57,350 bases of DNA from a virus, in IMG/VR virus record IMGVR_UViG_3300042564_001760, positions 1 to 57,350 of that record. One strand, 5' to 3'. Under the pieces are notes generated by a model. It saw only the letters and a list, made by a program, of their open reading frames with translations, did no database searches and was not told the DNA's origin. The translations under genes and the position numbers were made by a program. Below are positions 2,237 to 34,700 of the stretch, one piece after another (position 1 is the first letter of the stretch; the number at the start of each line of letters is the position of its first letter).

Positions 2237-5200
2237 TTATACAGGTGATTTAAACATGTCACCAAAACTAAATCCTTTTTGCACACGTAGCTGATCACTA
2301 TTGATGTTGGCCAATTGACTATTGATAGATATTAATTGTTCCAACTTACTATTTAACGAAGACAGCTGTGATACTGAATCATCTTGACCAAGTGATTGTT
2401 TACCAGTTTGGGTTTCAACGTCGTTGGAATTGTCATATCCGCGGCTACCGCCTTTGTTGGCTGCATTGGATTCTGGTCCAGCAACACTGCTGGCCGCATC
2501 AGCCATTTCTATACGTTTCAGTAGACTTGTTACAGAACCCATTGCAGATTCTGCTGGATCTGGGGCATTGTACTCAGCTGCTGCATCAATACCTTGGCCT
2601 TGTAATGCTGCTGCCATGTCCGATAATTTTTGTCTCATCATCTCAGTCTTCTCAACAAGCTCTGGACTGGTATCAGCAAACGTATTTTTGGAATCACCGC
2701 TTCTCAGAAAATCTACGCTATCTAATTGTGCTCTAAGCTGATTGTATGCAACTTTCATAGAAGTTCCAAGATCAGGAGCTTTTGGCATATTGCTAAAAGT
2801 CACAGGAATGTTTTTACCGCCTGGCAACGGTACCACAGCTTCGGTGCCGTGTAATTCAGCATCAAATCCACTCATAGGACCTTTAACAATCCCCCCATCT
2901 TTTGCTGAAGGTTTACCTGTATCTGGACTAGTTTCTTTCCCGCCTGCTCCTGCAACTTTTACAGATTTACCTGGTGCTGCAGGATTGTCAGGGGATCCTC
3001 CCCTGGCTTCTTTGGCTTCTATGTGCCAGGCTTCTGCACTCACAGGTCGAGCAAAACCAAATTTTTCAAATAGACCTAGACCTACTGCTTTGTTGGCATC
3101 TGCAGAATTTATATCAAAAGCTAGACCAACTTCGTGTTTACTACGTCCTGGAGGAGCTGCTCTTGGCGATCCATACTTTTTAAATAATTCTGCTTGTTCT
3201 TTTGAATCTCTATAGGCAGTATTAACCTGCATCTTTTGACCGGTAGTATTGAAATATTCTGATGCCATTCCAGCAAGACGTTTTTGAACTCCAGGTTCCA
3301 GGCCTTGTAGATTTACTCCAGGTTGAAGTTTTAGATATTTTGATAAGTCGCCAACGTCAGCCTGCATGCCTTCTGGTGATACACCAGTTGGTTGTTTGTC
3401 ACCCACAGCTGGTAATTTTGGACCACCAAGGTCTCCACTAGCAGATCCACTACCTCCACCACCACCGGAAGATGATGATGCAGCGCCTCCGGCCGCGCCT
3501 CCGCTACCACCACCACCACCGCCTCCTGCTGATGCTTTTCCGGCAGCACCACCACCACCTCCACTAAGACCTCCAGCTTTCATTGCTTTAGCAATTTCTT
3601 CAGGCGTTTCTGCTTTGCCGTTCTTTAAAGGTGGTGTACCGGGTGCTGATTTAAGTTTGCTGGCATTTTTATCAGCTTCTTCTTTTTCTTTCTTTGAAGT
3701 GTCTAAACGTTTTTGTGCAGCGTTTAAAGATTCTAGTGCTGCTTTCTTTTCTTCATCAGTTTTGGCAGCTGCATATTTTTTATCTGCTTCTTGAACTTCT
3801 GATCTTGCCGAAGCCAGTGCTTTTTCTTTTTCTTGTTGCTGTTGTGCCGCTTTAATATTGTTAGCAAAGAATCCGTTCTGCTGTGCGCTAAACGAGTTAA
3901 GCATGGCCATAGGACTGGATAGATCAACTTCTTTAGTTTCTGTTTTGGCTTCGGCTGCTTTTTTCTCAGCTTCAGTTTTGTCCCCAACTGCTTTTAATTC
4001 AGCTTGTTTTTTGGCTGCAATGCCATCTTTACTGCGCTGTTCGTTACGTGCTGCTATTGCTGCATCACGTTTGTCTCTTGCATCTAGCTTCTTAGCTTCT
4101 TCTGGATTTGTTTTTCTAAGAGCTTCTCTTTCAGCTTTAGCTTTGTCTGCTGCGGCTGCTTTATTTCTAGCTGCAGATTCTGCAGTTTCTTTCTCGTCGG
4201 CAGCTTTTTTATCAGCAGCAGTTTTGGCATCTGCTGCTTTATTTGCTTTCATTTGATTGCCCATATCGGCAGCAATCTCATTTCTCTTTTGACCTTCGGC
4301 TGATAATTCTTTTTCAACTTCTTGTATTTCTTTCTTGAAACTTACTCCTGGAATTAAATCTAATAATTTAAAAATTCCCATTTTAAGTTGCAAAAATACT
4401 GTTTTCATTATGCTGCCGACGTAACTAACAGCATCTCTCAAGACGTTAAAATCAATTCCTAGACCTTTAACACCATCAACTAGTTTTTTAGCACCGTATA
4501 CTAATAGCCCCACAACAGCTATAACTGCAAGTACAGGGGCTGCTATTGCTAGAAAAGGAGCCACAGCAGTCCATACTCCCGCTGCCATGGCTACCAACGA
4601 TGCAATAAATGGTAACGATGCCACTGCTTTGGCCGTGTCAGCTGCTGCTGAACCCCAGGCTGCAAGGGTCTTTGCTGTATCAGCCGCTGCTGAGGCCCAG
4701 GCTGCAACGGTAGCTACAACTTTGGCAGCAGTAAGACCAATCATCACACCCAAGAACACTGCCAATATAGGTTCTAGATTGTCTTCAATAAAATCACTGA
4801 CTACATAAAGTGAACTTTCAAATAGGCCAAGAACTCCTCCTGTGCTTTCCAACAAAGGATTTAACATAGATCCAATGATACCGCCTAATTTTTCTATTAT
4901 CGGAACCACACCAGTGGTTACAAAATCTGCCAGAATTCTAAATGCTGGCATTACATAATTATTGACAATGTCTACAGCAACTCCAAGCACAGCCGTAAAC
5001 AGTTTAGCTGCAGGTATTAACACACTACTAACTACCTCTGCCAGTGTGCCCATTGCACCCATCATCACATCAATTAGACCGCTGCTGGCCAAGAAGTTGG
5101 TAAATGTATTACTGAATTCTGCAAGTTTTTGTTTGGATTTTTCTAACGCCTCTGCCTGATTGGCTTTTTTTAATGTCTCAGCTTGTTCATCTGTGGCCTG

Positions 5201-6547
5201 GGACAATCCATTAATCTTTTGTCTTGCTAACTCAGCACCGCCACTGTAGGTGTCTCCCATTTCTTTATTAAACTGTCCAACACTTTTTAGAGTCTTGTTA
5301 CGTTCTCTTGCTTCTTCGATACCTGCGTTCCTAGTAGCATTCATAGACTCTTTGCTGATTTGACCTCCTGCCTGCAATGTACGACCATGTGCCTGCATCT
5401 GACTGGCCAATTTGGGATACATGGCTGCCATTTTTACACCTTCTTCAGAAGTAATGGTGCCAGTGGCCAACATATCTTTAATGGCGCTTTGTTGTGCTTT
5501 GGGGAAACTCTGTATGTAAGTCAACATATCTGATCGTTGCTTTTCATCCAGATGCTGCATAGCAGCTTCTACCTGTGCATCTTTGGCCAATCTCTCTCTT
5601 TCTTTGGCCAAGTCCTCTCTATTTTGTCCTGTAATCTTGGACAGTCCATTTAGTTCTTTCATGTAGGTGGCAGCACCCTGTGCCAGTTGAGTATTACTAG
5701 CACCTTGTAGCCTGCCGCTAGATCCCATTGTAGCTATGTAACCGGCCATTCCTTTGTTGATACCTTCAGTGGAATATCCCAATCGTAACAGTTCATCACC
5801 TAGGCCACTCTGCTTCATCTTCTTGCCAAGGTCGGCAAATCGTTTAGCTCCCGCTTCTGTAGTTCCGCCTAGTTCAGCCATGGCCTGGCCGTTACTAGAT
5901 ACTATCTTACTAAACTGATCCACTGTTAATCCTGCACCGGAAGCAGCATTGGTCATGGCATTCATACTGCCGCCAAATGTTGCACCAACGCTGGCCAATT
6001 GCTGATAAGATCCCAGTTGTTTTTCGGCTGCTGCTGCTACTGCGCCAAACACACCTGCAAGCATTGGTCCTACCACAGGTATCATACTGAACGAACTGGC
6101 TGCAGAAGTTAAACTGTTACCCATACTGGCCAGCTGGCCTGCGGCAGAAAATGCTGATTGTGTTAGACTTAGAAAGCTACCAGCTACAACACCTGCTCCA
6201 GTTGTTACTTTGCTAAATGCAGTAGATGCCGCACCTGTGGCTATTCCCAATGCTGTCAATCCCTTACTGCTTTTTCCTATCTGTTGTGTTTGTTGTCCTT
6301 GAGCTTTATTTGCGGCAGCAGATGCTCCAGGAGTTATTCCTCCGGATGCTCCTGCAGGTGGTGCTTTGCCAGGTGGAGGTGCTTTGCCAGGTGGCGGTGC
6401 TTTGTTATTTGGGCCTTGAGAAGATTTTAATTGTTTCTGGATGCCTTGCATCACTTTCAACAATTCTTCTAAAGTATGTTCCGATGCGGCATTTTCGGCA
6501 AGTATTTTACCAATGCCAGGAATGTCAATTTCTACTTTTTGAGCCAT
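2237..6547 (-). CDS. tape-measure-like tail protein with VanY (M15) peptidase domain
   Basis: This 1436-residue protein probably spans the tail lumen, as T4 gp29 (590 residues) does, and carries a peptidoglycan peptidase. Order seen: a Pro/Gly-rich N-terminal linker (about 48-75); an Ala/Ser-rich helical part; hydrophobic helices around 460-690; a Lys/Ala/Glu coiled coil (about 770-960); a Gly/Ser-rich linker (about 990-1035); and a VanY-type D,D-carboxypeptidase-like domain (about 1085-1180). That domain has the zinc motif SKHEVGLAFD and a later WHIE, which supply the His, Asp and His ligands. After it comes a KDGGIVKGP...ELHGTEAVVPLPGG segment of the kind found near the end of tape-measure proteins. 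It lies next to the portal gene and is divergent from the gp26-like gene with the frameshift signal. The tape-measure role is inferred from size, composition and neighbours; the peptidase motif is direct. Confidence 0.8.
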   Translation of the reverse strand: MAQKVEIDIPGIGKILAENAASEHTLEELLKVMQGIQKQLKSSQGPNNKAPPPGKAPPPGKAPPAGASGGITPGASAAANKAQGQQTQQIGKSSKGLTALGIATGAASTAFSKVTTGAGVVAGSFLSLTQSAFSAAGQLASMGNSLTSAASSFSMIPVVGPMLAGVFGAVAAAAEKQLGSYQQLASVGATFGGSMNAMTNAASGAGLTVDQFSKIVSSNGQAMAELGGTTEAGAKRFADLGKKMKQSGLGDELLRLGYSTEGINKGMAGYIATMGSSGRLQGASNTQLAQGAATYMKELNGLSKITGQNREDLAKERERLAKDAQVEAAMQHLDEKQRSDMLTYIQSFPKAQQSAIKDMLATGTITSEEGVKMAAMYPKLASQMQAHGRTLQAGGQISKESMNATRNAGIEEARERNKTLKSVGQFNKEMGDTYSGGAELARQKINGLSQATDEQAETLKKANQAEALEKSKQKLAEFSNTFTNFLASSGLIDVMMGAMGTLAEVVSSVLIPAAKLFTAVLGVAVDIVNNYVMPAFRILADFVTTGVVPIIEKLGGIIGSMLNPLLESTGGVLGLFESSLYVVSDFIEDNLEPILAVFLGVMIGLTAAKVVATVAAWASAAADTAKTLAAWGSAAADTAKAVASLPFIASLVAMAAGVWTAVAPFLAIAAPVLAVIAVVGLLVYGAKKLVDGVKGLGIDFNVLRDAVSYVGSIMKTVFLQLKMGIFKLLDLIPGVSFKKEIQEVEKELSAEGQKRNEIAADMGNQMKANKAADAKTAADKKAADEKETAESAARNKAAAADKAKAEREALRKTNPEEAKKLDARDKRDAAIAARNEQRSKDGIAAKKQAELKAVGDKTEAEKKAAEAKTETKEVDLSSPMAMLNSFSAQQNGFFANNIKAAQQQQEKEKALASARSEVQEADKKYAAAKTDEEKKAALESLNAAQKRLDTSKKEKEEADKNASKLKSAPGTPPLKNGKAETPEEIAKAMKAGGLSGGGGGAAGKASAGGGGGGGSGGAAGGAASSSSGGGGGSGSASGDLGGPKLPAVGDKQPTGVSPEGMQADVGDLSKYLKLQPGVNLQGLEPGVQKRLAGMASEYFNTTGQKMQVNTAYRDSKEQAELFKKYGSPRAAPPGRSKHEVGLAFDINSADANKAVGLGLFEKFGFARPVSAEAWHIEAKEARGGSPDNPAAPGKSVKVAGAGGKETSPDTGKPSAKDGGIVKGPMSGFDAELHGTEAVVPLPGGKNIPVTFSNMPKAPDLGTSMKVAYNQLRAQLDSVDFLRSGDSKNTFADTSPELVEKTEMMRQKLSDMAAALQGQGIDAAAEYNAPDPAESAMGSVTSLLKRIEMADAASSVAGPESNAANKGGSRGYDNSNDVETQTGKQSLGQDDSVSQLSSLNSKLEQLISINSQLANINSDQLRVQKGFSFGDMFKSPV

Positions 6548-6580: not shown

Positions 6581-6616
6581 AGATACCGTTAATAGTATTT
6601 ATTGGAGATCAAATCT

Positions 6617-7471
6617 ATGGAAAACAACCAACAGCCCAAGAAGACCATGTTGTCTAATTGGTATAGACAACCTAAAATCTATATTAGGTTGCCTTCTAAG
6701 GGTGAATACTATGCTAACGATGCTTTGGATAAAAGCACCACAGGAGACTATGCTGTCTATGCAATGACCGCCAAAGATGAACTGATGTTCAAAACTCCAG
6801 ATGCATTGTTAAACGGACAAAGCACCGTAGAAGTTCTTCGCAGTTGTATTCCTGCAATTCAAGACCCATGGAAGATGCCCAGCATTGATGTTGATGCGGC
6901 ATTGGTAGCTGTACGTATTGCAACCTACGGGGAAAAAATGGAAGTTAGTACAAATTGCCCAAATTGTGAAGCAGTAAATGATTATGAAATCAATCTCAAC
7001 ACTTGGTTGGAAAAATTAAATCAATTTCAATTTGATCCTAAGGTTACAGTAGATCCATTAACTGTTTATGTTAGACCCTATACCTATTTAGAAATGACTC
7101 AGACCAGTTTAAAAAGTCTAGAGCAACAGCGCATTTTTGGTGTTATCAACGACGAAACTCTCAGCGATGAAGAAAAATTAGACAAGTTTGGCAAGAGTTT
7201 TAGCAAACTCACACAACTAACTGTTGATGTAATTGCTCAATGCGTAGCACAGATAGAAACTCCAGATGGTATTGAAACTGATGCAACTGAAATAAAAAAC
7301 TTTATTCACAATTCACCTAAAGAAATTTTCAATGCCATTGCAGACCATGTACAGGCATTAAAAAGCAAGATTGATATTCCTGCTCAAGAAGTCAAGTGTA
7401 CCAGTTGTGAAACAGAATTTCTGATGCCAGTGACAATGGATCAATCAAATTTTTTCGCAGTAAGATCTTAA
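6617..7471 (+). CDS. 26: baseplate hub / tail assembly protein, gp26-like
   Basis: The protein has 284 residues and belongs to the T4 gp26-like baseplate family; T4 gp26 has 208. The start YRQPKIYIRLPSKGEYY is the family hallmark. Two CxxC pairs, CPNC in the middle and CTSC near the end, flank the helical half and could bind zinc. ATG 6617 is preferred over an in-frame TTG at 6602 because GGAG at 6604-6607 is well spaced for it. The last codons (AAT TTT TTC) form a slippery site, and the -1 frame continues into a second short ORF. A gp26-like gene next to the tape measure, with a -1 extension, is the arrangement of tail assembly chaperones in many other phages. That role here is inference. 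Confidence 0.85.
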   Translation: MENNQQPKKTMLSNWYRQPKIYIRLPSKGEYYANDALDKSTTGDYAVYAMTAKDELMFKTPDALLNGQSTVEVLRSCIPAIQDPWKMPSIDVDAALVAVRIATYGEKMEVSTNCPNCEAVNDYEINLNTWLEKLNQFQFDPKVTVDPLTVYVRPYTYLEMTQTSLKSLEQQRIFGVINDETLSDEEKLDKFGKSFSKLTQLTVDVIAQCVAQIETPDGIETDATEIKNFIHNSPKEIFNAIADHVQALKSKIDIPAQEVKCTSCETEFLMPVTMDQSNFFAVRS

Positions 7472-7529
7472 AACTTTCCGTACCGGAGATCTTACAAGAA
7501 GCCGAAAAGATGGAAAAAGAGGTACGGAA
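7447..7529 (+). promoter_or_regulatory. candidate programmed -1 frameshift signal with H-type pseudoknot
   Basis: Two overlapping slippery heptamers lie in the gp26-like frame: A_AAT_TTT (7447-7453) and T_TTT_TTC (7450-7456). Stem 1 is GTAAGATCT (7460-7468) with AGATCTTAC (7487-7495), a perfect 9 bp. The loop segment TTCCGTACC (7476-7484) is perfectly complementary to GGTACGGAA (7521-7529), another 9 bp, giving an H-type pseudoknot. The spacer is 6 or 3 bases depending on the heptamer. The zero-frame stop TAA (7469-7471) lies in loop 1. A -1 shift gives a fusion of about 355 residues instead of 284. All pairings are read directly; function is inferred. Confidence 0.75.
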
Positions 7530-7683
7530 GATCAAAAAAGAAGCTTTTCAAATGGCCTGGTATATGCGTGGTATGAGCTATGCCGAAGCCATGAATCTCA
7601 GTTGGGATGAAAGAGAAATTATAGGCGAAATTATTAAAGACAATCTAGAAACTACCAAGAAGACACAACTACCGTTCTTCTAA
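7510..7683 (+). CDS. short ORF in -1 frame after gp26-like gene; probable frameshift extension
   Basis: From ATG 7510 this ORF codes for 57 residues. The frame is open back to about 7408, and the codons after the slippery site (7453-7509) also read like protein: FRSKILKLSVPEILQEAEK. The body is a charged helix followed by EAFQMAWYMRGMSYAEAMNL, then a WDEREII helix and a C-terminal TTKKTQLPFF. No good Shine-Dalgarno sequence precedes ATG 7510; the nearest GGAG (7485-7488) is about 20 bases away and buried in stem 1 of the pseudoknot. It is therefore more likely made as the tail of a gp26-like fusion than as a free protein. Separate initiation at 7510 cannot be excluded. It ends just before a terminator. 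Confidence 0.75.
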   Translation: MEKEVRKIKKEAFQMAWYMRGMSYAEAMNLSWDEREIIGEIIKDNLETTKKTQLPFF

Positions 7684-7685
7684 CA

Positions 7686-7709
7686 AAAAGGACTCCTAGG
7701 AGTCCTTTT
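7686..7709. terminator. bidirectional Rho-independent terminator
   Basis: A perfect 24-base palindrome consists of A4, GGACTCCT and its complement AGGAGTCC, then T4. Read either way it forms a strong hairpin followed by T residues. It sits between two converging genes, the gp26-like extension ending at 7683 and the minus-strand gene ending at 7717, so it probably stops transcription from both sides. Confidence 0.85.
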
Positions 7710-22773: not shown

Positions 22774-25700
22774 ATGGCAAAAGATATTTTCCCTCAAAGT
22801 CAGTTACCGATTCGTAGAACTGTAGAACTCCTACCAGAAGTCTTTCAGACCGAAACCAATGCAAAATTTATGTCTGCAGTTGTTGATCCATTGGTTCAAC
22901 CTGGCACATTATCTAAAACAGTTGGCTATGTAGGTCGTAGATACGGTAAAACTTATAATGGTTCGGATGTATACTTAGACACAGATGCAACTCTTAGAAG
23001 TAGATATCAATTAGAACCTGGCGTCACAGTCAAAGACAAAGATAAAGTAGAAAATTTTTATGATTATATTGATTTTAAAAATCAATTAAAGTTTTTTGGT
23101 AACCATCTAGAAAGAGATGATCTAATCACAGATCAAGATCATTATTCTTGGAATCCACCAATTGATTGGGACAAGTTTGTAAATTTCCGTGAATATTATT
23201 GGGTACCAGATGGTCCCCCGCCTATCACGATATTCGGACAACAACAGTCTATAACCAGCACATATAGAGTAAGATTAGGAGTAGGATCGTCTTGGATATT
23301 CTTCCCAGACGGACTATCATTGAATCCCACCCTCACACTCTATAGAGGACAAACATACAAGTTTCAAGTCAATGCGCCGGGTGAGGGTTTTGTTATTAAA
23401 ACTGCTTATGATACAGGGTCATTAGTTTACAAACCTTATCTACCATATCAACAAGGTCAATTTGCTGTATTCAACAACAAGTTATGGAAAGCCAAAACTT
23501 TTATTGCAATCACTGATGGAAGCACCATAGATGAAGACAGCCAGGATTGGGAATATGTTGAAGCAGCTAGTCAGGCCACTGCATTAGACTATAATACAGG
23601 AATCACCGGTCAAGGCGCAACCAATGGCACCTTGACTTTTACTGTGCCTTTCGATGCACCTGATGTGTTGTTTTATCAAAGCGCCACAGACATCAATAGA
23701 TTTGGCAGGTTCCTTATTGCTGATATTGAATCAAATACCAAAATAGATATTACTAATGAAGTTGTTGGCAAAGCCACATATGTCAGTAGTAACGCTATTA
23801 CATTTACCAACGGTATGAAAGTTAGATTTTCTGGTCAAGTGACGCCTACAAAATATTCCACAGACACTTGGGTAATAGAAGGTGTTGGAGAATCTATTAG
23901 GTTAATAAGATTTCAAGACTTGTCCCCTCCAACTCTTAGCACAACAAGTTTAGAAGTGTTGTTTGACGACGGCGGATTTGATACAGAGCCTTTTGATGAT
24001 GCGGCCACATATCCAGAATCAAAAGACTACATTACAATTAATAGAGCCAGTCAAGATTCAAATCCTTGGAGCAGATACAATAGATGGTTTCACAGATCAG
24101 TTCTAGAACAAGCACACTCCCTCAACAACAGCGAGTTTGACTCAATTGAAACAGCTCGAGCCAAAAGACCTATCATTGAATTTACTTCAAACCTACAGTT
24201 ATTCAATCACGGCAGTCTAGCAAAAACTCCAGTTGATTTTGTTGACACCTTTACCACCGACGTGTTTTCAACCATAGAAGGCAGTATTGGATACAACATT
24301 GACGGGGAAGAATTATTTAATGGTGCTAGACTATTGGTCACAGCAGATACTGATACACTAGCCAACAATAGAATTTATACAGTAAACTTTATAATTCACA
24401 ACAATCGTAGACAAATCAATTTGGTAGAAACTGTCGACGCAACTTCTACCATTGGTGACGGAGTGTTTGTTAGACGAGGTTTACTAAACAAAGGAATAAT
24501 GTACCACTTTACCGGTACATCTTGGGTTCCCAGTCAAAAGAAAACCGCAGTAAATCAAAGTCCGTTATTTGATGTATTTGATGATAATGGTGTCAGTTAC
24601 GGAGACATGGATACATATCCTGTTAGCAGTTTCTTAGGAACTAAACTAGTAAGTTATAAAGTCGGAAACAGTGTTATTGATAAAGAATTAGGATTTAGTC
24701 TAAGTTATCTAAACATCAACAATGTAGGGGATATTGAATTTAATTTTGATTGGGATGTAGATACATTTGATTATCACTCTAGTAAAGAAGTATTTTTTAA
24801 AACCATAAGACAAGGTTATTACAAATTTACACATACCGGAAGTTATGCTAACGGATGGCTTAAATCTGATCGAACATATTTACAGCCGGTAATTTACAGT
24901 ACCACGGTTACTGAAGTTTCAACACGAATCGTCAGCAATGGAATCAAATGGACAGATGTTCAAGACAGTGAAATTTCCAAAATTTTAATCTACATTAATG
25001 GAATAAAATATTCTGGAAGCTACACTAGAAATCAAAATATTTTTACATTTCCTAATAGTTTTAAAATAAATGACATTGTTACGGTTAAGGTTTTTGCAGA
25101 TGCAGATCCTCATCTAGGATATTATGAGATTCCAGTAGGACTTGAAAAAAATCCTTTAAACGGAGAAGTAAAAACATTTACTCTAGGACAGGCAGTTGAC
25201 CATGTTTCAACAGCAATAGACCTATTCGAACAATTCAGCGGATCATATCCAGGTGTGAGCAATTTGAGAGATCTTACTGGGTATCAAAATCTATCACGAA
25301 GATTTTTAAAACATTCGGGAATTACACCTACAGCAATAATGTTGCTGTGCGACAAGCACGTAAACATTATTAAATCTATTCAATTTGCAAAAAAATCTTA
25401 TACAGAATTTAAAAATAACTTTATTAAATTTGCTGAAACTGCCACATACAATCTAGATCCTGTTGAATTTGTTGATGATATTTTGGCCACTATGTCCAAA
25501 ATTAAAACACAAAAAGATGCGTTTGCAGATTCTGACATGGTAGGTAGTGGTGCTTACAATCTCAAAGAATACATTGTAGAAGACACAGAAATCACAACCT
25601 TTGCACTGAATACAAAATTTAATTTAACTCAACTTAGTAGAACAGCAGTTTATATCTATATCAACAATACACAGTTGACACACGGCGTTGATTATACATT

Positions 25701-28700
25701 TAATGATACGTTTGGATTTGTTAGTATTTCTAAATCTCTAGCAGAAGGAGATGTTATTCAAATAAAAGAATATGTTTCTTCAAGTTTCTGTTTTATTCCA
25801 CCAACTCCTTCAAAATTAGGTCTATATAAAACTTTTATTCCGTCTTTGTTTTTAGATGATACTTATGTGACGCCAATTAATGTTATCCAGGGACATGACG
25901 GCAGTATCACAGTGGCCTACGGTGATTTTAGAGATGATGTGCTATTGGAATTAGAAAAACGCATCTACAACAACATCAAGCAAGTATACACAGAAGATTT
26001 GTTTAGTCAAGATGCTATCCTTGGAGGATACTACGGATCATCTACATATACCAAACAAGAATTAGACAGCGTGATTAGTTCTGAATTCCTAAGATGGTTT
26101 AGTGAAACAAATGTAGACTATCTGACCAACACATTTTTTGACAGTGAAGATTCTTTCACATATACCTATTCAAATATGGGAGACCCAACCGGTCAGCTAA
26201 ATTTGCCCGGATGGTGGAGAGGAGTGTACACCTGGTTGTACGATACTGATAGGCCACATCGTTGTCCTTGGGAAATGTTGGGATTTAGCCAACAACCTAG
26301 TTGGTGGGAAGATCAATACGGTGCTGCACCGTATACAAAAAATAATTTACTATTGTGGGAAGATCTAGCAAGTGGTATAATTCGCCAAGGACCTCGAGTA
26401 GGAACGTATGATAGATATAAAAGAGCCACTCTGCTAAATCATATTCCTGTAGACGGTGACGGCAACCTATTAAGCCCATTTGAATCCGGAGCAGCTACTA
26501 ATTTTGTTTTATACAACAACAAAGGCACATTTAAATTTGGTGATCTAGCTCCAGTGGAATATGCCTGGCGCAGCAGTAGTGATTATCCATTTGTTATTAT
26601 GCTGGCTCTATGTCTAATGAGACCTTATGAATTTATCATTGAAACTCTTGATAAATCTAGAATCAAAGTTAACAAAATTGGCCAAACAGTTAATAAAAAC
26701 ACAAATTTATTCTTTAAAAATTCGGACATTGTTATTCCGACGTCCGGAGGCAATCAAACTTCTGGACTTGTAAATTATGTTGTAGATTATTTGAGGTCAA
26801 GAGGACTAACTGAATCTGTGCTTCAGAAGAAAATAGACAATCTAGATGTCAATTTATCTACCAGATTAAGCGGATTTGTAGATCAGAGTCAACAAAAATA
26901 TATTTTAGACAGTAAAAATCCCAGCGCCAGCACCAGTAATATTTTTCTTCCTCAAGAAAATTATGACATTAATTTTAATATCAGCGCACCAATTTCCAGT
27001 CCAAGTTACAGTGCAGTAGTAGTTGAAAAACTAGCCAGCGGTTTCAAACTGTTTGGATATGACATCAACGAACCGTATTTTAGATACTTCGAAGCTGCAA
27101 AAAGTTCCAATGATCCTTTGCTATCAGTCGGTGGCGTTAGTGAAAATTTCATAGATTGGGAAGCTAACAAGATATTTGGTAATGGAACAATAATTAGAGT
27201 ATCTGATATTTTTTACAGATGTATTAAATCACACACCAGTGGCGCAGAGTTTGATGCACAATTTTGGCAAAGAATAGCAAAATTACCGTTGGTAGGTGCA
27301 ATAGAAGTTTTTAGAAGAAGAACGGTAAACAGTGCCACGGTAAAAGAACTACCTTACGGCACAGTATTTTCATCTCTACAAGACATAGCAGATTTTATCA
27401 TAGGGTATGATGCATATCTACAATCACAGGGATTTGAGTTCACCGGCTATGACGGAAATCTAGAATCGGCTAAAGATTGGATAACATCGATAAAAGAGTT
27501 GTTGTTTTGGTCAAAACATAAATGGGCCGAAAGTTCACTAATCACGTTAAGTCCAGCTGCTGCAAAAATAGAGTTGAATATTGATATCGGAGTTGCTGAC
27601 AATCTGCTTGATAGCTTTTATGATTATAATATTTTAAAAGTTGATGGAACCATTTTGCCTGTGGAATTTATAAATGTCAACAGAGAGTTTAAAAAAATAA
27701 CGGTAGATGTTGTCAACGACTCGGACGGCATATACTTTTTTAGATGTTATTTTGTTTTGAAAGAACACGTAACAATTTTTGATGATCGTACAGTTTTTAA
27801 TGATGTGTTATATGACAAGCCAACAGGCTATCGTCAAGAACGTATAAAGAGTCGCGGATTCCGTACAGTTGACTGGGACGGTGATTATACTAGTCCGGGA
27901 TTCTTGTTTGACAATGTCAATATACAGATATGGCAACCCTTCACAGATTACAAACTAGGTGACATTGTCAATTATAAATCTTACAATTGGACCAGCCTTG
28001 TAAATCAACAGGGTGCTATTCAATTCAAAGACAGTAATTGGACTAAATTAGACACAACTCCTGCCAAAGGATTGATCAGCAATTTTGATGTCAGAGTCAG
28101 CCAGTTTGAAGATTACTATAATGTAGATGCCGACGGCGCCGGCGCCAGTCAGCGTGAACTAGCAAGACACCTCATAGGATATCAAACTAGAGAATATTTA
28201 CAAAATCTTGCAGAAGATAATGTTACTCAATTTAAATTGTATCAAGGATTTATTAGAGAAAAAGGCACAGCCAATGCTGTGGTCAAGGTTTTTGACAAGC
28301 TCAGCAGAATCACTGCCGACAGCATTGTGTTAGATGAAGAATGGGCATTTAATGTTGGTAGATTGGGAGGCATAGATCAACTCAACGAAATAGAATTTGA
28401 AATTGTCAAAGATAATCTACTGGTAAATCCTCAGGCCATAGTTATTACTAACGGACCAATTTCTAAAAATTCATTGGACAAATATCTAAGAGTAAATCAA
28501 ACTAACTTTACTAGGTCCTTGATTCCTTATAGTGTTGACATCAATCCATTGACCGTCTATCAAGGAATTACTAGAAATGCTGGATACGTTAAAACAGATC
28601 AAATAGAATTATTTGTAAGATCAAGAGAAGACATATTATCACTGGATATTTCGTCTTTGGTTGAAAATTCTCATATATGGATTACCTTTGATAATGCATC

Positions 28701-31700
28701 TTGGACAGTGTTGAGATTAAACCTCAACACAGCCCTAATAATTGAAGACATCGTCAAAGATTCTACCACAAGCGTAATTACTGTAACTGTGAGTCGAAAA
28801 CACGGACTAACAGTAGATGAAATTGTAGGCATAAAAGACATTGTAAATTTCACCGGATTTTATAAAGTTGTAGCTGTTACTGATTATACCTTTGGTGTCC
28901 AAGACGGCCCCGGTCCTGTGCCAAGTGCTCCAGATATAAGTTCTATACAATACAACATATATCAGTTGACACAATCCAGATTTAATTCTTATCAAGACCT
29001 TGGAGATCAAACCGCAGCTCTGTTAAAACAAGGATCAAAGTTATGGATCGACAACACCGACGCAACTGTAGGCAATTGGGAAGTTGTTGAAAAACAAAGA
29101 CTGTACGTTGAAAAACCAATCACCAATTTTGGAGCCACTGATCCCAGAAATACAGGAAGAGCTGTGGTATATGCTGACAACCTCAAACAGGTTATTACAG
29201 GAATACCCTCTGCCAACTCTGTAATGGTTTACTCAGAAACTGTCACAGGATTATCTGTAAAAGAAATACTACAACCAGAAACTGAATTTACAAATACAAC
29301 GGCAAATAGTTTTGGAGATGCCATTGCTATCAGTCCTGATAATGTTTGGTTAGCAGTAGGAGCTCCTTTGGCTTCTGGAGTACCTAGTAGATTCAAAGGA
29401 ATTTACGAGGACAGCTATATAGATCCACTTATACCAGCAGCATCTTATCGTGCCGGCGATATAGTGTTGCAAAATGGAAAATTATGGGAAGCCACTAACG
29501 ATCAACAGCCCGGCGATGGCAGCACCAATACTCTGAACACATTGTCTGTGAATTTTAGAAATGAAGATTGGAAACTGGTTGACGTAGTCTACGCCAATTC
29601 GTCGGGATCGCTAGGACCAGTAAAACAAGGTATGGTGGTTCTATACAAACGAAAAAATAATGCATGGGAATTGCAACATACAATTCTTAGCCCTCGAATT
29701 GAAGCAAATGAAAAGTTTGGATCGAGTATCTCTATTGGAGTTTCTGGCGCAAATTATTATATGTCAATCTCTGCTCCTGGATCTCTTAACGATCTAGGCA
29801 GAGTTTATCTTTACAAATATACTGGTACAACAGCAGGATCAACAACACAGATTCTGACGTTTAATGGAACCAGTGCTGTAAATTATGCAGTGAATACAAT
29901 TACGTTTTCAAGAAATCATAATTATATTACCGGCCAACTTGTGAGGTATCTCAACGGCACATATGCCGGAGATGATAAATCTCTAGCTACATCGCCTCCA
30001 CCACCTGAAGATTACACAATCTTATACGCAATAAGAATTACAGATACTGTTATACAATTGGCAACTTCAGTAGTAAACGCCACAACCGGAACAGAAATTG
30101 ATCTCAAAGATTTTGGTATAGATGATTCAAGTTCCCATACCTTAATCAGCACAGCGACTGTTGGTTGGAAACAGATGGGAGATCCTGAATACCGAGGACT
30201 TTATACTAGTAGCGTTAGTGCTATTTACAGCCAAGGATCTAAAGTTTGGTATGAAGGAAGAATATATCAAGCACTAGAAGATACCTATGGTGACGGAACA
30301 TCACTTGATTTATCTACCAGCAATTCTTGGCAGGTCCTAGATGAATCAGTAACTGAAGTTTCATTACCATCTAACATTGCCTTGATTGACAGTGGAAATG
30401 TTCTTCCAATTCTTCAAGACAGCTCTACAGCTATTCTGGGATCGATATATCCTTTGGTCACAGCTGGCAATTTTAAACTAGGTGAAATCTATAGAATTGA
30501 AGATTATGGTACTACAAATTTTCAACTTATCGGTAATAATCCTGCAGCCGGTGACGGCCTAACGTTTAAAGCCACTGGAGTTGGTTCAGGTACAGGTACA
30601 GCAAGATGGACATCCTATCAGTTTGCAGAATTGATTAAAGCTGGTGATATGTTTGGCCAAAGTCAGGCCATGAGTCGAGACGGCAGTGTATTAGTAGTCG
30701 GGGCTCCTGAAAGTGACGGAATATACATTGCCAACTATAAAGGGGTATGGGCACATTATCAAACATATTACGAAGATGATATAGTAAAATATAATGGAGA
30801 TTATTATAGATTAGTCGACTATGATCCTCTTACAGGCGGCGAAGCAGATTCGTCTGAAGATTCTACTTATATAACTACTAGTAAAAATGATGTGCCCACA
30901 AACAGCAGTCTACAAGGTCCGTGGACTTTTGTTAGCTCTGAAATTTCTAATCCTTCTGGGAAGATTTTTATCTATAAAAGAAATACCAATGATGTTTACG
31001 AACTAGCTCAAACTATCACTGCTGGGTCGTTGATTGAAATTAGCGATGTTGTAAATATTGACAACCTAAATACCGGAGACAAGTTTGGAGCAGCAGTAGA
31101 CATTGACTATAACGGAACTACAATTATTGCCAGTAGCCCACAAGCAGATGTAAAATCTACCGATCAAGGTGCAGTGTTTGTGTTTAAGTCCGCACAGTTA
31201 GATACTATTTCTTATAGATTGAAACAAAGACTAATCAGCCACGAAAATTATGCCAACGAGTATTTTGGGTCTGCTATCAGCATTAGTCCCGCAACAGAAA
31301 AAATAGTTGTAGGTGCCAGTAATGCCAGTTTTAACCTGTTTACAATATATGATCAAGGTTCAACATCTTTTGATAATACTAACACCACATTTAGTTCTGA
31401 CGAAGGCAATACAGGCCAGGTCTATGTGTTTGAAAGAAAAGATCAAACATATCACCTAACAGAAAAATTATATGTACCAGACCTACAAGACTGGGAATCA
31501 TTTGGTTCTAGTGTAGACTGTGTGGGATCTGTGATAGCAGTGGGATCTCCTACATATCGAGATACAGTTTATAGAATAGGTGTTAATTTTACAACTACTA
31601 TTCTATTGGGAGCCAGCGGCAATAATGCACTCACAGTAGATGTAATAATACAAGACGGAGTTATTGTATCTGCTATAGCTAAAGATTCTGGAGCTGGATA

Positions 31701-34700
31701 TACTGTTAGTGACTTCGACGATGATACCGATGCTATTGAAATTAATGGATCTGCAGACAAAGCTCGTATCAAAGTACAGTCGATGTCTGCTGGTACTATA
31801 ACTAAGTTGTTTGTGTCCTATGGAGGTAGCGGATATACCGGCAGCGCAGAAGTTATTGAAACTGGCCAGGTTAGATTGTTTACTAAAGATACAACTAAAA
31901 ATCCGTGGAATACCATCGCCTCAAGACAAGACCTAACTGATATAGAATTGTTTAAAAACATTTCAATATACGACAATGAAACCAATGTGAAAATTTCAGA
32001 TATTGAAATAGTTGATCATTACAAATTAAAAATACTAGGTGCAGCCGAACAAGAATTAAAATTCAAAACGCTGTACGATCCTGCAACATATACCAACGGC
32101 ACCGATCAACAAGAAGTTGATGAATCCCAGGCCTGGTTTGAAAAACACGTTGGAGAACTGTGGTGGGACCTAAGTACTGCCAAGTGGTTGCTCTATGAAC
32201 AGGGTGATATTTCCTATCGAATTGGCAACTGGAATCAATTAGCCTACGGCGCCAGCATAGATGTGTATGAATGGGTAGAATCAAAATATTTGCCCAGCAG
32301 ATGGAATGTGTTAGCAGATACAACTGAAGGTCTTGCACAAGGAATTTCAGGCCAGCCGCTATACCCGGATAACACAGCGTATTCTGTAAAGATTTTAACC
32401 AATTCTTCAACAGGTGAAACTACAGATACAAAATATTATTATTGGGTCAAGAATAAAAATATAGTGCCAAAAAATGTTCCAGGCAGAAGAATTACAGCAT
32501 TGGATGTAAAGAGCTATATTGAAAATCCAATAGGCACAGGACAGCCTATACTATCTCCGATAGCCGCAGATACTTTATTGGCTTTCAATTTTGAATCTTT
32601 GATTTCTTCAAATACCGCGTTGATTAATATTCAATATAGAAAAAATCTAAAAGCCTTGAATTCTATTCACAATGAATATCAGTTATTGACCGAAGGGGTT
32701 GCAGACAGTCTCCCAACAGAAACCCTAGAAGCCAAATGGATAGACAGTTTGGTAGGGTATGACCTTGCTGGTAACATAGTGCCGGACGCCGGTATACCTA
32801 TCAAGCAGCGATATGGTCTAAGTTTTAGACCCCGTCAGACAATGTTCAAAGATAGATTTGCCATTTTAAAAACAGTAATTATCAACATCAATTCAGTATT
32901 AAAAACTCGAGCGTTTTCCGATACTTTGAATTTTATCAATCTTGGATCAGTTGATCCAGAACCTTCCAGTGTATTAAATCAATATGATGTACGTGTGGAC
33001 ACACTAACTGATCTTGCAGAAGTAGGAACAACAAGAGTTAAAAAAGCTGTGCTTAGAGCTAATATTGTTGACGGAGAAATTGATACTATTGATATCACAG
33101 ATTCTGGATTTGGTTATAGAAATGCTCCATTCGTCAACCTTGAAGGAAACGGTCAAGGAGCCACAGCACGGGTCACTACCGACAGTCAAGGCAGGATAAA
33201 TTCTGTGACAGTGTTGTCCAAGGGTCGTCGTTATACATCTGTCGTAGCAGAAATAAGATATTTTTCTGTACTGGTTGCACAAGATAGTTCGATCAACAAT
33301 TATTGGAGTATCTATTCCTGGGACGATATAAGAAAAACTTTCTTTAGGTCTAAGTCTCAGGCTTTTAATACCAGCAAATATTGGGAATACATTGATTGGT
33401 GGCAAGACGGGTACGGAGTGACTTCAAGAATAGTCAAAGAAATTACCGATCTTTATCAAGAACCGTCAATAGCTGTCAATATAGGTGATCTAATACGTAT
33501 TCAAGAATTTGCCAATGGCGGTTGGGCAGTTTTAGAAAAAACTGAGCCTACTCAGGGTAATATTTTAGACAATTATATTCTTGTTGGCAGAAAAAATGGC
33601 ACCATCAATTTAATAATTGACGATCTAGTGGCTGTACAAAATATAGGATATGACAACGCTATTTCTTTTGATGCTGATGTGTATGATATAAATCCCACAC
33701 AAGAATTGCGTAACATTTTAAAAGCAACTAAAGAAGATATTTTTACTGAAGACCTTAGAGTAGAATGGAATAAATTATTCTTTACCAGTATTCGATATGC
33801 ATTTGTAGAGCAACCATATATTGATTGGGCCTTCAAAACAAGTTTCTTAAACGCTACTCACAATGTTGGCGATTTAGAGCAAAAAATAAATTACAAAAAC
33901 GATAATTTAGAAAACTTTCAAGAATACATAGAAGAAATCAAACCCTATAGAACCACAATTAGAGAATATATTTCCAAATACACAGATAGGGATACTTCGT
34001 ATTCGGGAACCACTGATTTTGACCTACCTCCAGAGTACTCTACTCAAGATGGAAAAATATTACCAATTAGATCAAACAGCGACAGATTCACTAGTTATCC
34101 TTGGAAATGGTGGACTGACAACAACGGATACGTTGTTACTGAAATTACTGTGTCTAACGGGGGTGCTGATTACACAGAAGTCCCTAGTGTAATAATTGAA
34201 GGCAACGGCGCCGGCGCAACAGCTCAGGCATTTGTGGCCAATGGCAGTGTTGTAGCTGTAAAGGTTCTAACCAAAGGTCAGGGTTATACACAGGCCCCTA
34301 GTGTCAGTCTAGTTGGCGGCAATGGTACCAGTCAAAGCATTGCCAAAGCTGTGGCCACAATTGGTGAAACTGCGGTAAGAACATTTGATCTTACTGTGAA
34401 ATTTGATAGAATTGCTAAACAAGGAATATACCAAACATTTACCAAATCTGAAATTTTTACAGCCACAGGAGTTTCTGCAGTTTTCCAATTGCAATATGCA
34501 CCTAATAGAGACAAGAGCAAGATTTCAATAACTAAAAATAATCAAATTGTATTGAACAGTGAATATACAATCACATTGTATACTTCCACAACGGATACAT
34601 ATAGCTTGATCAAAGGCAAACTAATTTTCAATACAACCCCAACTCTAGGTGATATAATAGAAATCAACTACGAAAAGAATGTAGAATTATTTGACAGTAT

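What the first reader, a model, noticed from the sequence alone, without database searches (positions are those of the whole stretch)
7447..7529. Pseudoknot-driven -1 frameshift in a T4-type gp26-like gene beside the tape measure
The end of the gp26-like gene has overlapping slippery heptamers A_AAT_TTT and T_TTT_TTC. A 9-bp stem (7460-7468/7487-7495) follows, and its loop pairs perfectly with 7521-7529 (9 bp). The zero-frame stop lies within the knot. The -1 frame is open and protein-like to 7683, and the ATG at 7510 lacks a ribosome-binding site. Two perfect 9-bp helices in pseudoknot order just after a slippery site are very unlikely by chance. In many phages a -1 frameshift next to the tape measure makes the two forms of a tail assembly chaperone (lambda G/GT). 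I know of no such signal described for the T4 gp26 family, so this may be the T4-like counterpart.
Basis: partly seen in the sequence, partly recalled or inferred. Interest (0 to 1): 0.87.

Follow-up and report, generated by a model that had tools for sequence, protein, structure and literature searches.

The report
Frameshift joins two phage tail-chaperone halves
In this T4-related virus a conserved slippery site followed by a folded RNA knot very probably makes some ribosomes shift frame at the end of a tail-assembly gene, giving a short and a long form of one chaperone; the trick is well known in tailed phages, but here it sits in the T4-like gp26 family with an unusual conserved knot.

Summary
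The gp26-like gene (6617-7471, PF12322) ends in T_TTT_TTC (7450-7456) followed by two perfect 9-bp helices in pseudoknot order, the only such place in the window. Every relative that covers the site keeps T_TTT_TTY in frame: 81/81, 79/79 and 31/31 sequences in three searches, the last two blind to that region. The -1 frame is open in all but L057, which lacks ~190 nt; it evolves as protein (pN/pS 0.25; other frames 1.3-1.5) and is conserved from the first codon after the slip. Both helices covary. Best reading: -1 ribosomal frameshifting makes G and G-T tail assembly chaperones. 16 of 16 frameshift-bearing records tested carry one PF12322 gene; T4 and RB43, without the heptamer, carry two. The kind is known: T4-like chaperone genes were identified in 2022 (paper not held), and a 2025 paper cites that work for poly-T slip signals. 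Apparently new: the covarying pseudoknot, supported only in the window's clade, and the breadth of conservation. No protein evidence.

The parts
6617..7471 (+). gp26-like gene, zero-frame product (G form, 284 aa); PF12322 T4_baseplate, phrog_150 baseplate hub
   Evidence: 58.5 bits against a cut-off of 24.5
6604..6607 (+). GGAG, likely Shine-Dalgarno sequence of the gp26-like gene, 9 nt before ATG 6617
   Evidence: sequence, read by eye
7450..7456 (+). slippery heptamer T_TTT_TTC
   Evidence: T_TTT_TTY in every relative with a -1 extension that covers it (T_TTT_TTT in L195/L196, XacN1 and pf16, T_TTT_TTC in the rest)
7469..7471 (+). zero-frame stop codon TAA, inside the knot
7460..7468 (+). 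stem 1, 5' arm
   Evidence: 88.5% and 87.0% of cells paired, compensatory changes at 4 of 9 pairs in each set
7487..7495 (+). stem 1, 3' arm
   Evidence: as above
7476..7484 (+). stem 2 (pseudoknot), 5' arm in the loop of stem 1
   Evidence: 69.6% and 61.6% of cells paired in fixed register, compensatory changes at 6 and 5 of 9 pairs
7521..7529 (+). stem 2 (pseudoknot), 3' arm
   Evidence: as above
7456..7683 (+). -1 frame extension (T domain, 75 aa after the slip; 355-residue fusion with the 280 residues up to FF)
7686..7709 (+). terminator-like hairpin just after the -1 stop
   Evidence: 1 found, shuffles mean 1.1, so weak by itself
2237..6547 (-). divergent neighbour, probable tape measure protein (1436 aa) with a VanY-type peptidase domain
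   Evidence: similar to the equally placed Phosso gene, E 1e-8, 20% identity; the RaK2 gene in the same place is noted as similar to a tape measure protein; PHROG matches are lysis and head/packaging families; inferred

Best explanation
The locus encodes a tail assembly chaperone of the T4 gp26 family in two forms. Most ribosomes read 6617-7471 and make the 284-residue G form. A minority slip back one base on T_TTT_TTC (two phenylalanine tRNAs re-pair on TTT TTT), miss the stop inside the knot and read the -1 frame to 7683, giving a 355-residue G-T form with a helical C-terminal domain. An H-type pseudoknot of two 9-bp helices just downstream probably slows the ribosome and sets the ratio. By analogy with lambda gpG/gpGT, the G part would coat the tape measure protein and the rarer T part would recruit tail tube subunits. 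Shown by comparison: the conserved slip site, coding constraint in the -1 frame from its first codon, covariation of both helices, single-copy family in relatives. Inferred: the shift itself, its efficiency, the stimulating role of the knot, and the chaperone function.
For: Slip site in frame in 81 of 81 sequences (80 loci and the window), in 79 of 79 loci reached by an N-terminal query blind to it (the 80th contig ends inside it), in 31 of 31 of a jumbo-phage set (the 32nd contig ends before it), and in 14 of the 16 phage records read (the other two have the extension in the +1/-2 frame). Phe codons elsewhere in these genes are TTT 1322, TTC 352, yet the pair is TTT TTC in 139 of 141 distinct sequences. 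The first -1 residue is Arg in 138 of 141 while the zero-frame residue over nearly the same bases varies (A 72, G 32, V 22, E 8, D 5, R 1, I 1). -1 frame pN/pS 0.25; the other frames 1.34 and 1.50 with about 6 and 5 stops each (52 distinct sequences of the first set). 75 of 141 have no ATG in the first 20 -1 codons, and the T domain model has one helix over residues 9-38 that a start at 7510 (residue 19) would cut. Covariation: 0 of 500 shuffles reach the covariation score in two sets, and sliding the pairing drops paired cells from 79% and 74% to at most 49%. One PF12322 copy in 16 of 16 frameshift-bearing records and in S-PM2; two in T4 and RB43. T4 gp26 and gp51 are listed as hub assembly chaperones (PMC3004832, passages).
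Against: No protein or ribosome-profiling evidence. The spacer to stem 1 is only 3 nt. Ordinary folding energy is unremarkable (z -1.08). Two of the five covariation measures do not stand out in the second set (pairs changed on both sides: 237 of 500 shuffles as high; further pair types: 166 of 500), and one does not in the first (65 of 500). The pseudoknot is missing or unproven outside the window's clade: no consensus structure in 23 sequences of a second clade, and 6 of 9 isolate sequences score no better than synonymous shuffles (12 or more of 30 as good; PA5oct, SCTP-2 and XacN1 are the exceptions). Within the first set 14 of 53 distinct sequences lack at least one stem-1 pair and stem 2 is broken in 30% of cells, partly through shifted register. 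L057 has lost the T domain. Some relatives have an ATG early in the -1 frame (for example Phosso and L145, ATG overlapping the zero-frame stop), where coupled initiation is possible. The chaperone fold match (HK97 gp13) is weak. The review that lists gp26 as a chaperone also cites genetic studies placing gp26 in the hub. The divergent placement beside the tape measure gene is not the classical one.
Confidence: 0.9

Rival explanations
1. The T domain is an independent small gene, started at the ATG at 7510 or by termination-reinitiation near the zero-frame stop; the slip site is incidental.
For: Annotators list a separate CDS there in 12 of 14 annotated -1 type records (not in PA5oct or RaK2) and in S-PM2, P-HM1, pf16 and OLIVR6. 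In Phosso and some contigs an ATG overlaps the zero-frame stop.
Against: The -1 frame is conserved upstream of any common start: Arg at the first codon in 138 of 141. The residue at the ATG-7510 position is Leu in 86 and Met in 36 of 141; 70 of 141 have no ATG/GTG/TTG in the first 10 codons. The start would cut a predicted helix. The slip heptamer would have no reason to be invariant.
Confidence: 0.04
2. RNA polymerase slips on the six T residues and makes mRNAs of shifted frame; ribosomes do not shift.
For: A T6 run is invariant; the two frames would be joined all the same.
Against: Six T is short for efficient transcriptional slippage (recalled, not from a call). The last codon is TTC in 139 of 141, breaking a longer T run that Phe coding would allow. 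A covarying downstream pseudoknot fits a ribosomal mechanism, though only in the window's clade.
Confidence: 0.05
3. The frame joint is a sequencing error or a decayed gene.
For: None found apart from L057, where about 190 nt of the T domain are missing.
Against: The same joint occurs in 190 loci (80 + 79 + 31, some contigs counted in two searches) and in isolate genomes, with purifying selection on the -1 frame.
Confidence: 0.01

Closest known systems
Lambda gpG/gpGT tail assembly chaperone frameshift
   Same: -1 shift near the 3' end of a chaperone gene, short form plus long fusion, gene near the tape measure gene
   Different: Different protein family; a T_TTT_TTC site with a pseudoknot here; the gene faces away from the probable tape measure gene here. 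Lambda facts from passages of PMC5009743.
T4 gp26 and gp51 (T4-like tail assembly chaperones of Vladimirov et al. 2022)
   Same: Same Pfam family PF12322. The gp51 C-terminal tail is related to the -1 products of cyanophages and their kin (hhalign 97.9%), more weakly to the window's T domain family (77%, E 2e-5, 34 columns).
   Different: T4 encodes two PF12322 genes and its gene 26 ends in TTC TTT, not slippery. Here one gene serves through a frameshift.
Cyanophage gp26 plus small 'gp51' (S-PM2, P-HM1)
   Same: Zero-frame gene ends in T_TTT_TTC and the small ORF continues the -1 frame from the slip
   Different: There the pair lies upstream of and in line with the next large gene, a probable tape measure gene; pseudoknot not tested.
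Vandenendeviridae/Andersonviridae chaperone frameshift (phage Adele, PMC12846349)
   Same: Conserved poly-T -1 shift at the end of the chaperone gene, -1 frame open in all alleles examined there
   Different: GTTTTT motif; no pseudoknot mentioned in the passages read
HK97 gp13 tail assembly chaperone (PDB 2ob9)
   Same: 99 of 107 residues align to the predicted G domain, Z 5.6, rmsd 4.4
   Different: 6% identity; rank 43 among unrelated helical matches, Z below the level that can be trusted alone

Membership tests
PF12322 T4_baseplate (gp26/gp51) | Profile match above the curated cut-off | tested here: met
   58.5 bits against 24.5, residues 43-280
[quoted passage not shown]
Tail assembly chaperone with G/GT frameshift | Both protein forms made | not testable with these tools
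   no proteomic data
Tail assembly chaperone with G/GT frameshift | Binds the tape measure protein and is absent from the virion | not testable with these tools
   needs experiments; for T4 gp26 the literature disagrees
Tail assembly chaperone with G/GT frameshift | Gene directly upstream of and in line with the tape measure gene (usual, not defining) | tested here: not met
   adjacent but head to head in the window, as with the equally placed genes of RaK2, CBB and PA5oct; in line in LIS04 and, with the next large gene, in S-PM2 and P-HM1
Tail assembly chaperone with G/GT frameshift | Chaperone fold | tested here: inconclusive
   2ob9_A Z 5.6, 99 residues aligned, among unrelated helical matches; Foldseek alone gives nothing at E 0.001 or better in the PDB
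H-type -1 frameshift pseudoknot | Two interleaved helices downstream of the slip site, kept by compensatory change | tested here: met
   in the window's clade only
H-type -1 frameshift pseudoknot | Spacer of about 5-8 nt (general, not absolute) | tested here: not met
   3 nt between 7456 and 7460; usual range from a passage of PMC4066793
T4-type split chaperone (separate short and long genes) | Two PF12322 genes per genome | tested here: not met
   one copy in 16 of 16 frameshift-bearing records, among them 6 contigs of 183-327 kb related to the window; the window itself is a 57-kb record with one match to its own protein, so its whole genome was not tested

The most novel reading that the evidence does not exclude
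-1 frameshifting on T_TTT_TTY is the ancestral and prevailing way in which the T4 gp26 superfamily makes its two tail chaperones, kept in cyanophages, jumbo phages and even some Straboviridae (VH7D, Aeromonas P19). The T-even arrangement, which made T4 look like the exception to G/GT frameshifting, is a derived state in which a gene duplication fixed the frameshift product as gene 51. In the window's lineage an H-type pseudoknot was recruited to tune the ratio.
Probability: 0.6. Interest if true: 0.6.

Novelty: new variant of a known kind. Interest (0 to 1): 0.47.

Why it matters
A 2016 review states that G/GT frameshifting is widely conserved in long-tailed phages except T4 (PMC5009743, passage), and the 2022 title on T4-like phages speaks of a mechanism other than frameshifting. 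The comparison here suggests that T4 is the exception inside its own superfamily: recoding with one gene and duplication with two genes look like interchangeable solutions, so the change from one to the other can be placed on a tree and tested. It also gives a clear natural example of a covarying pseudoknot at a phage frameshift site. And it may correct annotation widely: half of a chaperone is now listed as a separate hypothetical protein or 'gp51', or is missed (searches match 64 and 701 phage records, of which I read the site in 16 and 6).

Tried and rejected
Rejected: A_AAT_TTT as the operative heptamer (not conserved); independent gene and sequencing error (see rivals). Led nowhere or against: plain RNA fold; consensus fold of 23 of the 32 sequences of a second clade with immediate zero-frame stops, no structure; pseudoknot search against synonymous shuffles: 37 of 53 first-set sequences beat all 30 shuffles, but only 33 of the other 88, and 12 of 141 got no structure at all because only maximal stems were tried (L013 and L015 of the window's clade among them); Pfam and PHROG scans of the T domain, nothing at E 0.01 for the window's own copy (three weak PHROG matches of E 0.03-0.3; 8 of 43 family members match the unnamed phrog_18291); PDB sequence search of the G domain, nothing; Foldseek in the PDB, nothing at E 0.001 or better; BLASTP of the neighbour against the large genes after gp51 in P-HM1 (part of it) and S-PM2, nothing. 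Literature: Vladimirov et al. 2022 is not held; it is known here only from passages of PMC10885494 and PMC12846349 and reference lists. That a pseudoknot at a tail chaperone shift site is undescribed rests only on the search listings and the passages read.

Full report
What is there. The gp26-like gene at 6617-7471 belongs to PF12322 and PHROG 150, baseplate hub. It ends ...AAT TTT TTC GCA GTA AGA TCT TAA. T_TTT_TTC lies at 7450-7456 and the stop at 7469-7471. Stem 1 (7460-7468/7487-7495) and stem 2 (7476-7484/7521-7529) are both 9 of 9 Watson-Crick pairs in H-type order. Of 57,130 positions per strand only 14 adjoining starting points meet the same geometry on the + strand (7446-7459) and 14 on the - strand (7530-7543): the same place seen from both sides. 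The -1 frame runs to 7683, and a terminator-like hairpin follows at 7686-7709.

Conservation of the slip site. Relatives were gathered in three ways. A search with the whole protein gave 80 loci, the best of 96; one of its six seed peptides covers the slip region at the protein level, so this set is partly conditioned on it. A search with an alignment of N-terminal parts, ending 30 codons before the slip, gave 80, the best of 596 confirmed places; some contigs recur from the first set. A search with jumbo-phage N-terminal parts gave 32. The in-frame heptamer is present in 81 of 81 (with the window), 79 of 79 that reach the site, and 31 of 31 that reach it. It reads T_TTT_TTC except in L195 and L196, which read T_TTT_TTT. 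Of 16 phage records read (of 64 matched), 13 have T_TTT_TTC, XacN1 has T_TTT_TTT, and LIS04 and LR756508 have the extension in the +1/-2 frame. Six more distant phages all fit: S-PM2, P-HM1, VH7D, OLIVR6 and Aeromonas P19 with T_TTT_TTC, pf16 with T_TTT_TTT. Five Straboviridae-type gene-26 ends (T4, PhT2-v2, Aeromonas 31, Proteus P4-3, RB43) lack it.

The -1 frame is a protein read from the slip. In 52 distinct 75-codon -1 ORFs of the first set (others have 76-77 codons or are cut) pooled pN/pS is 0.25, against 1.34 and 1.50 in the other frames, which hold about 6 and 5 stops each (pairs of sequences pooled, no tree). In 141 distinct sequences the first -1 residue is Arg in 138, although the overlapping zero-frame codon encodes A, G, V, E, D, R or I. 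75 of 141 have no ATG among the first 20 -1 codons. A structure model of the T domain (pLDDT 91) is all helical, with one helix from residue 9 to 38; the ATG at 7510 is residue 19. The single broken case, L057, has lost about 190 nt relative to the near-identical L056, by true deletion or assembly error.

The pseudoknot. On 53 distinct sequences (L057 and the distant L076, L078 and L080 included) 79.1% of cells pair, with compensatory changes at 4 pairs of stem 1 and 6 of stem 2. 0 of 500 shuffles reach the covariation score, the paired percentage or the number of compensatory cells; the number of pairs changed on both sides is not exceptional (65 of 500). Slides of 1-3 bases reach at most 48.3%. 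On 23 further sequences plus the window the figures are 74.3%, 0 of 500 for the same three measures, at most 48.8% on sliding; the counts of changed pairs (237 of 500) and of pair types (166 of 500) are ordinary. That second set was chosen by me: 22 of the 34 new sequences with the window's zero-frame end spacing, and L107. The 12 left out (L142, L161, jumbo contigs L179-L181 and L184-L187, L197, L198, L203) were shown and mostly do not pair, so the result holds for the window's clade, not for the superfamily. Relatedness inflates shuffle tests; the slide control keeps it. Against synonymous shuffles 37 of 53 first-set sequences beat all 30 shuffles, but only 33 of the other 88, and a second clade gave no consensus structure. 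The knot therefore cannot be essential to the mechanism as such.

Function. T4 gp26 and gp51 are listed as hub assembly chaperones, though the same review cites genetic work placing gp26 in the hub (PMC3004832, passages). PF12322 finds both in T4 and two places in RB43, but one in S-PM2, LIS04 and LR756508 and one in each of 16 frameshift-bearing records. The gp51 tail of five T-even-type phages matches the -1 products of cyanophages and their kin (hhalign 97.9%); the window's T family matches gp51 tails at 77% and the cyanophage set at 57%, over the same 34 columns. So T4 gp51 looks like a G-T fusion held in one frame. The G domain model (pLDDT 92) aligns with 99 of 107 residues of HK97 gp13, Z 5.6, which is suggestive only. 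In LIS04 the gene lies between tail tube and tape measure genes, the classical chaperone place. In the window it is head to head with the probable tape measure gene.

Prior art. A review says G/GT frameshifting is widely conserved except in T4 (PMC5009743, passages). PRFect cites Vladimirov et al. 2022 for some T4-like phages using a short gene plus a longer fusion gene (PMC10885494, passages). The Adele paper cites the same work for poly-T -1 signals in T4-like chaperone genes (PMC12846349, passages). I could not read the 2022 paper. The phenomenon is therefore known in kind, and perhaps for some of these very phages.

Verdict. A real, strongly conserved -1 frameshift site of a T4-superfamily tail assembly chaperone, with a clade-specific covarying pseudoknot. 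New variant of a known kind.

Noticed in passing
L089:3986-4945 (Listeria phage LIS04) and L093 (LR756508): The gp26-like gene is followed by a T-like ORF in the +1/-2 frame rather than -1 (likeness judged by eye), so these lineages may use a different shift; in LIS04 it fills an unannotated gap before the tape measure gene.
   Followed up: partly
L057 around 3866: A contig near-identical to L056 lacks about 190 nt, nearly the whole T domain; true deletion or assembly error.
   Followed up: partly
window 2237-6547 (-): The probable tape measure protein carries a VanY-type peptidase domain at residues 1084-1153 and is divergently transcribed from the chaperone gene.
   Followed up: partly
window 22774-37464: A single open reading frame of 4896 residues, very long for a phage structural gene.
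   Followed up: no
BFVD matches of the G domain model: Uncharacterized proteins of giant phages (phiEaH2, phiRSL1, RP12, RSF1, Special G, Motura) resemble the G domain; they may be unrecognised tail assembly chaperones.
   Followed up: no
L226 (VH7D) and L229 (Aeromonas P19): These Straboviridae keep the frameshift site and a single PF12322 gene while T4 and RB43 have two, so the switch may lie within the family.
   Followed up: partly
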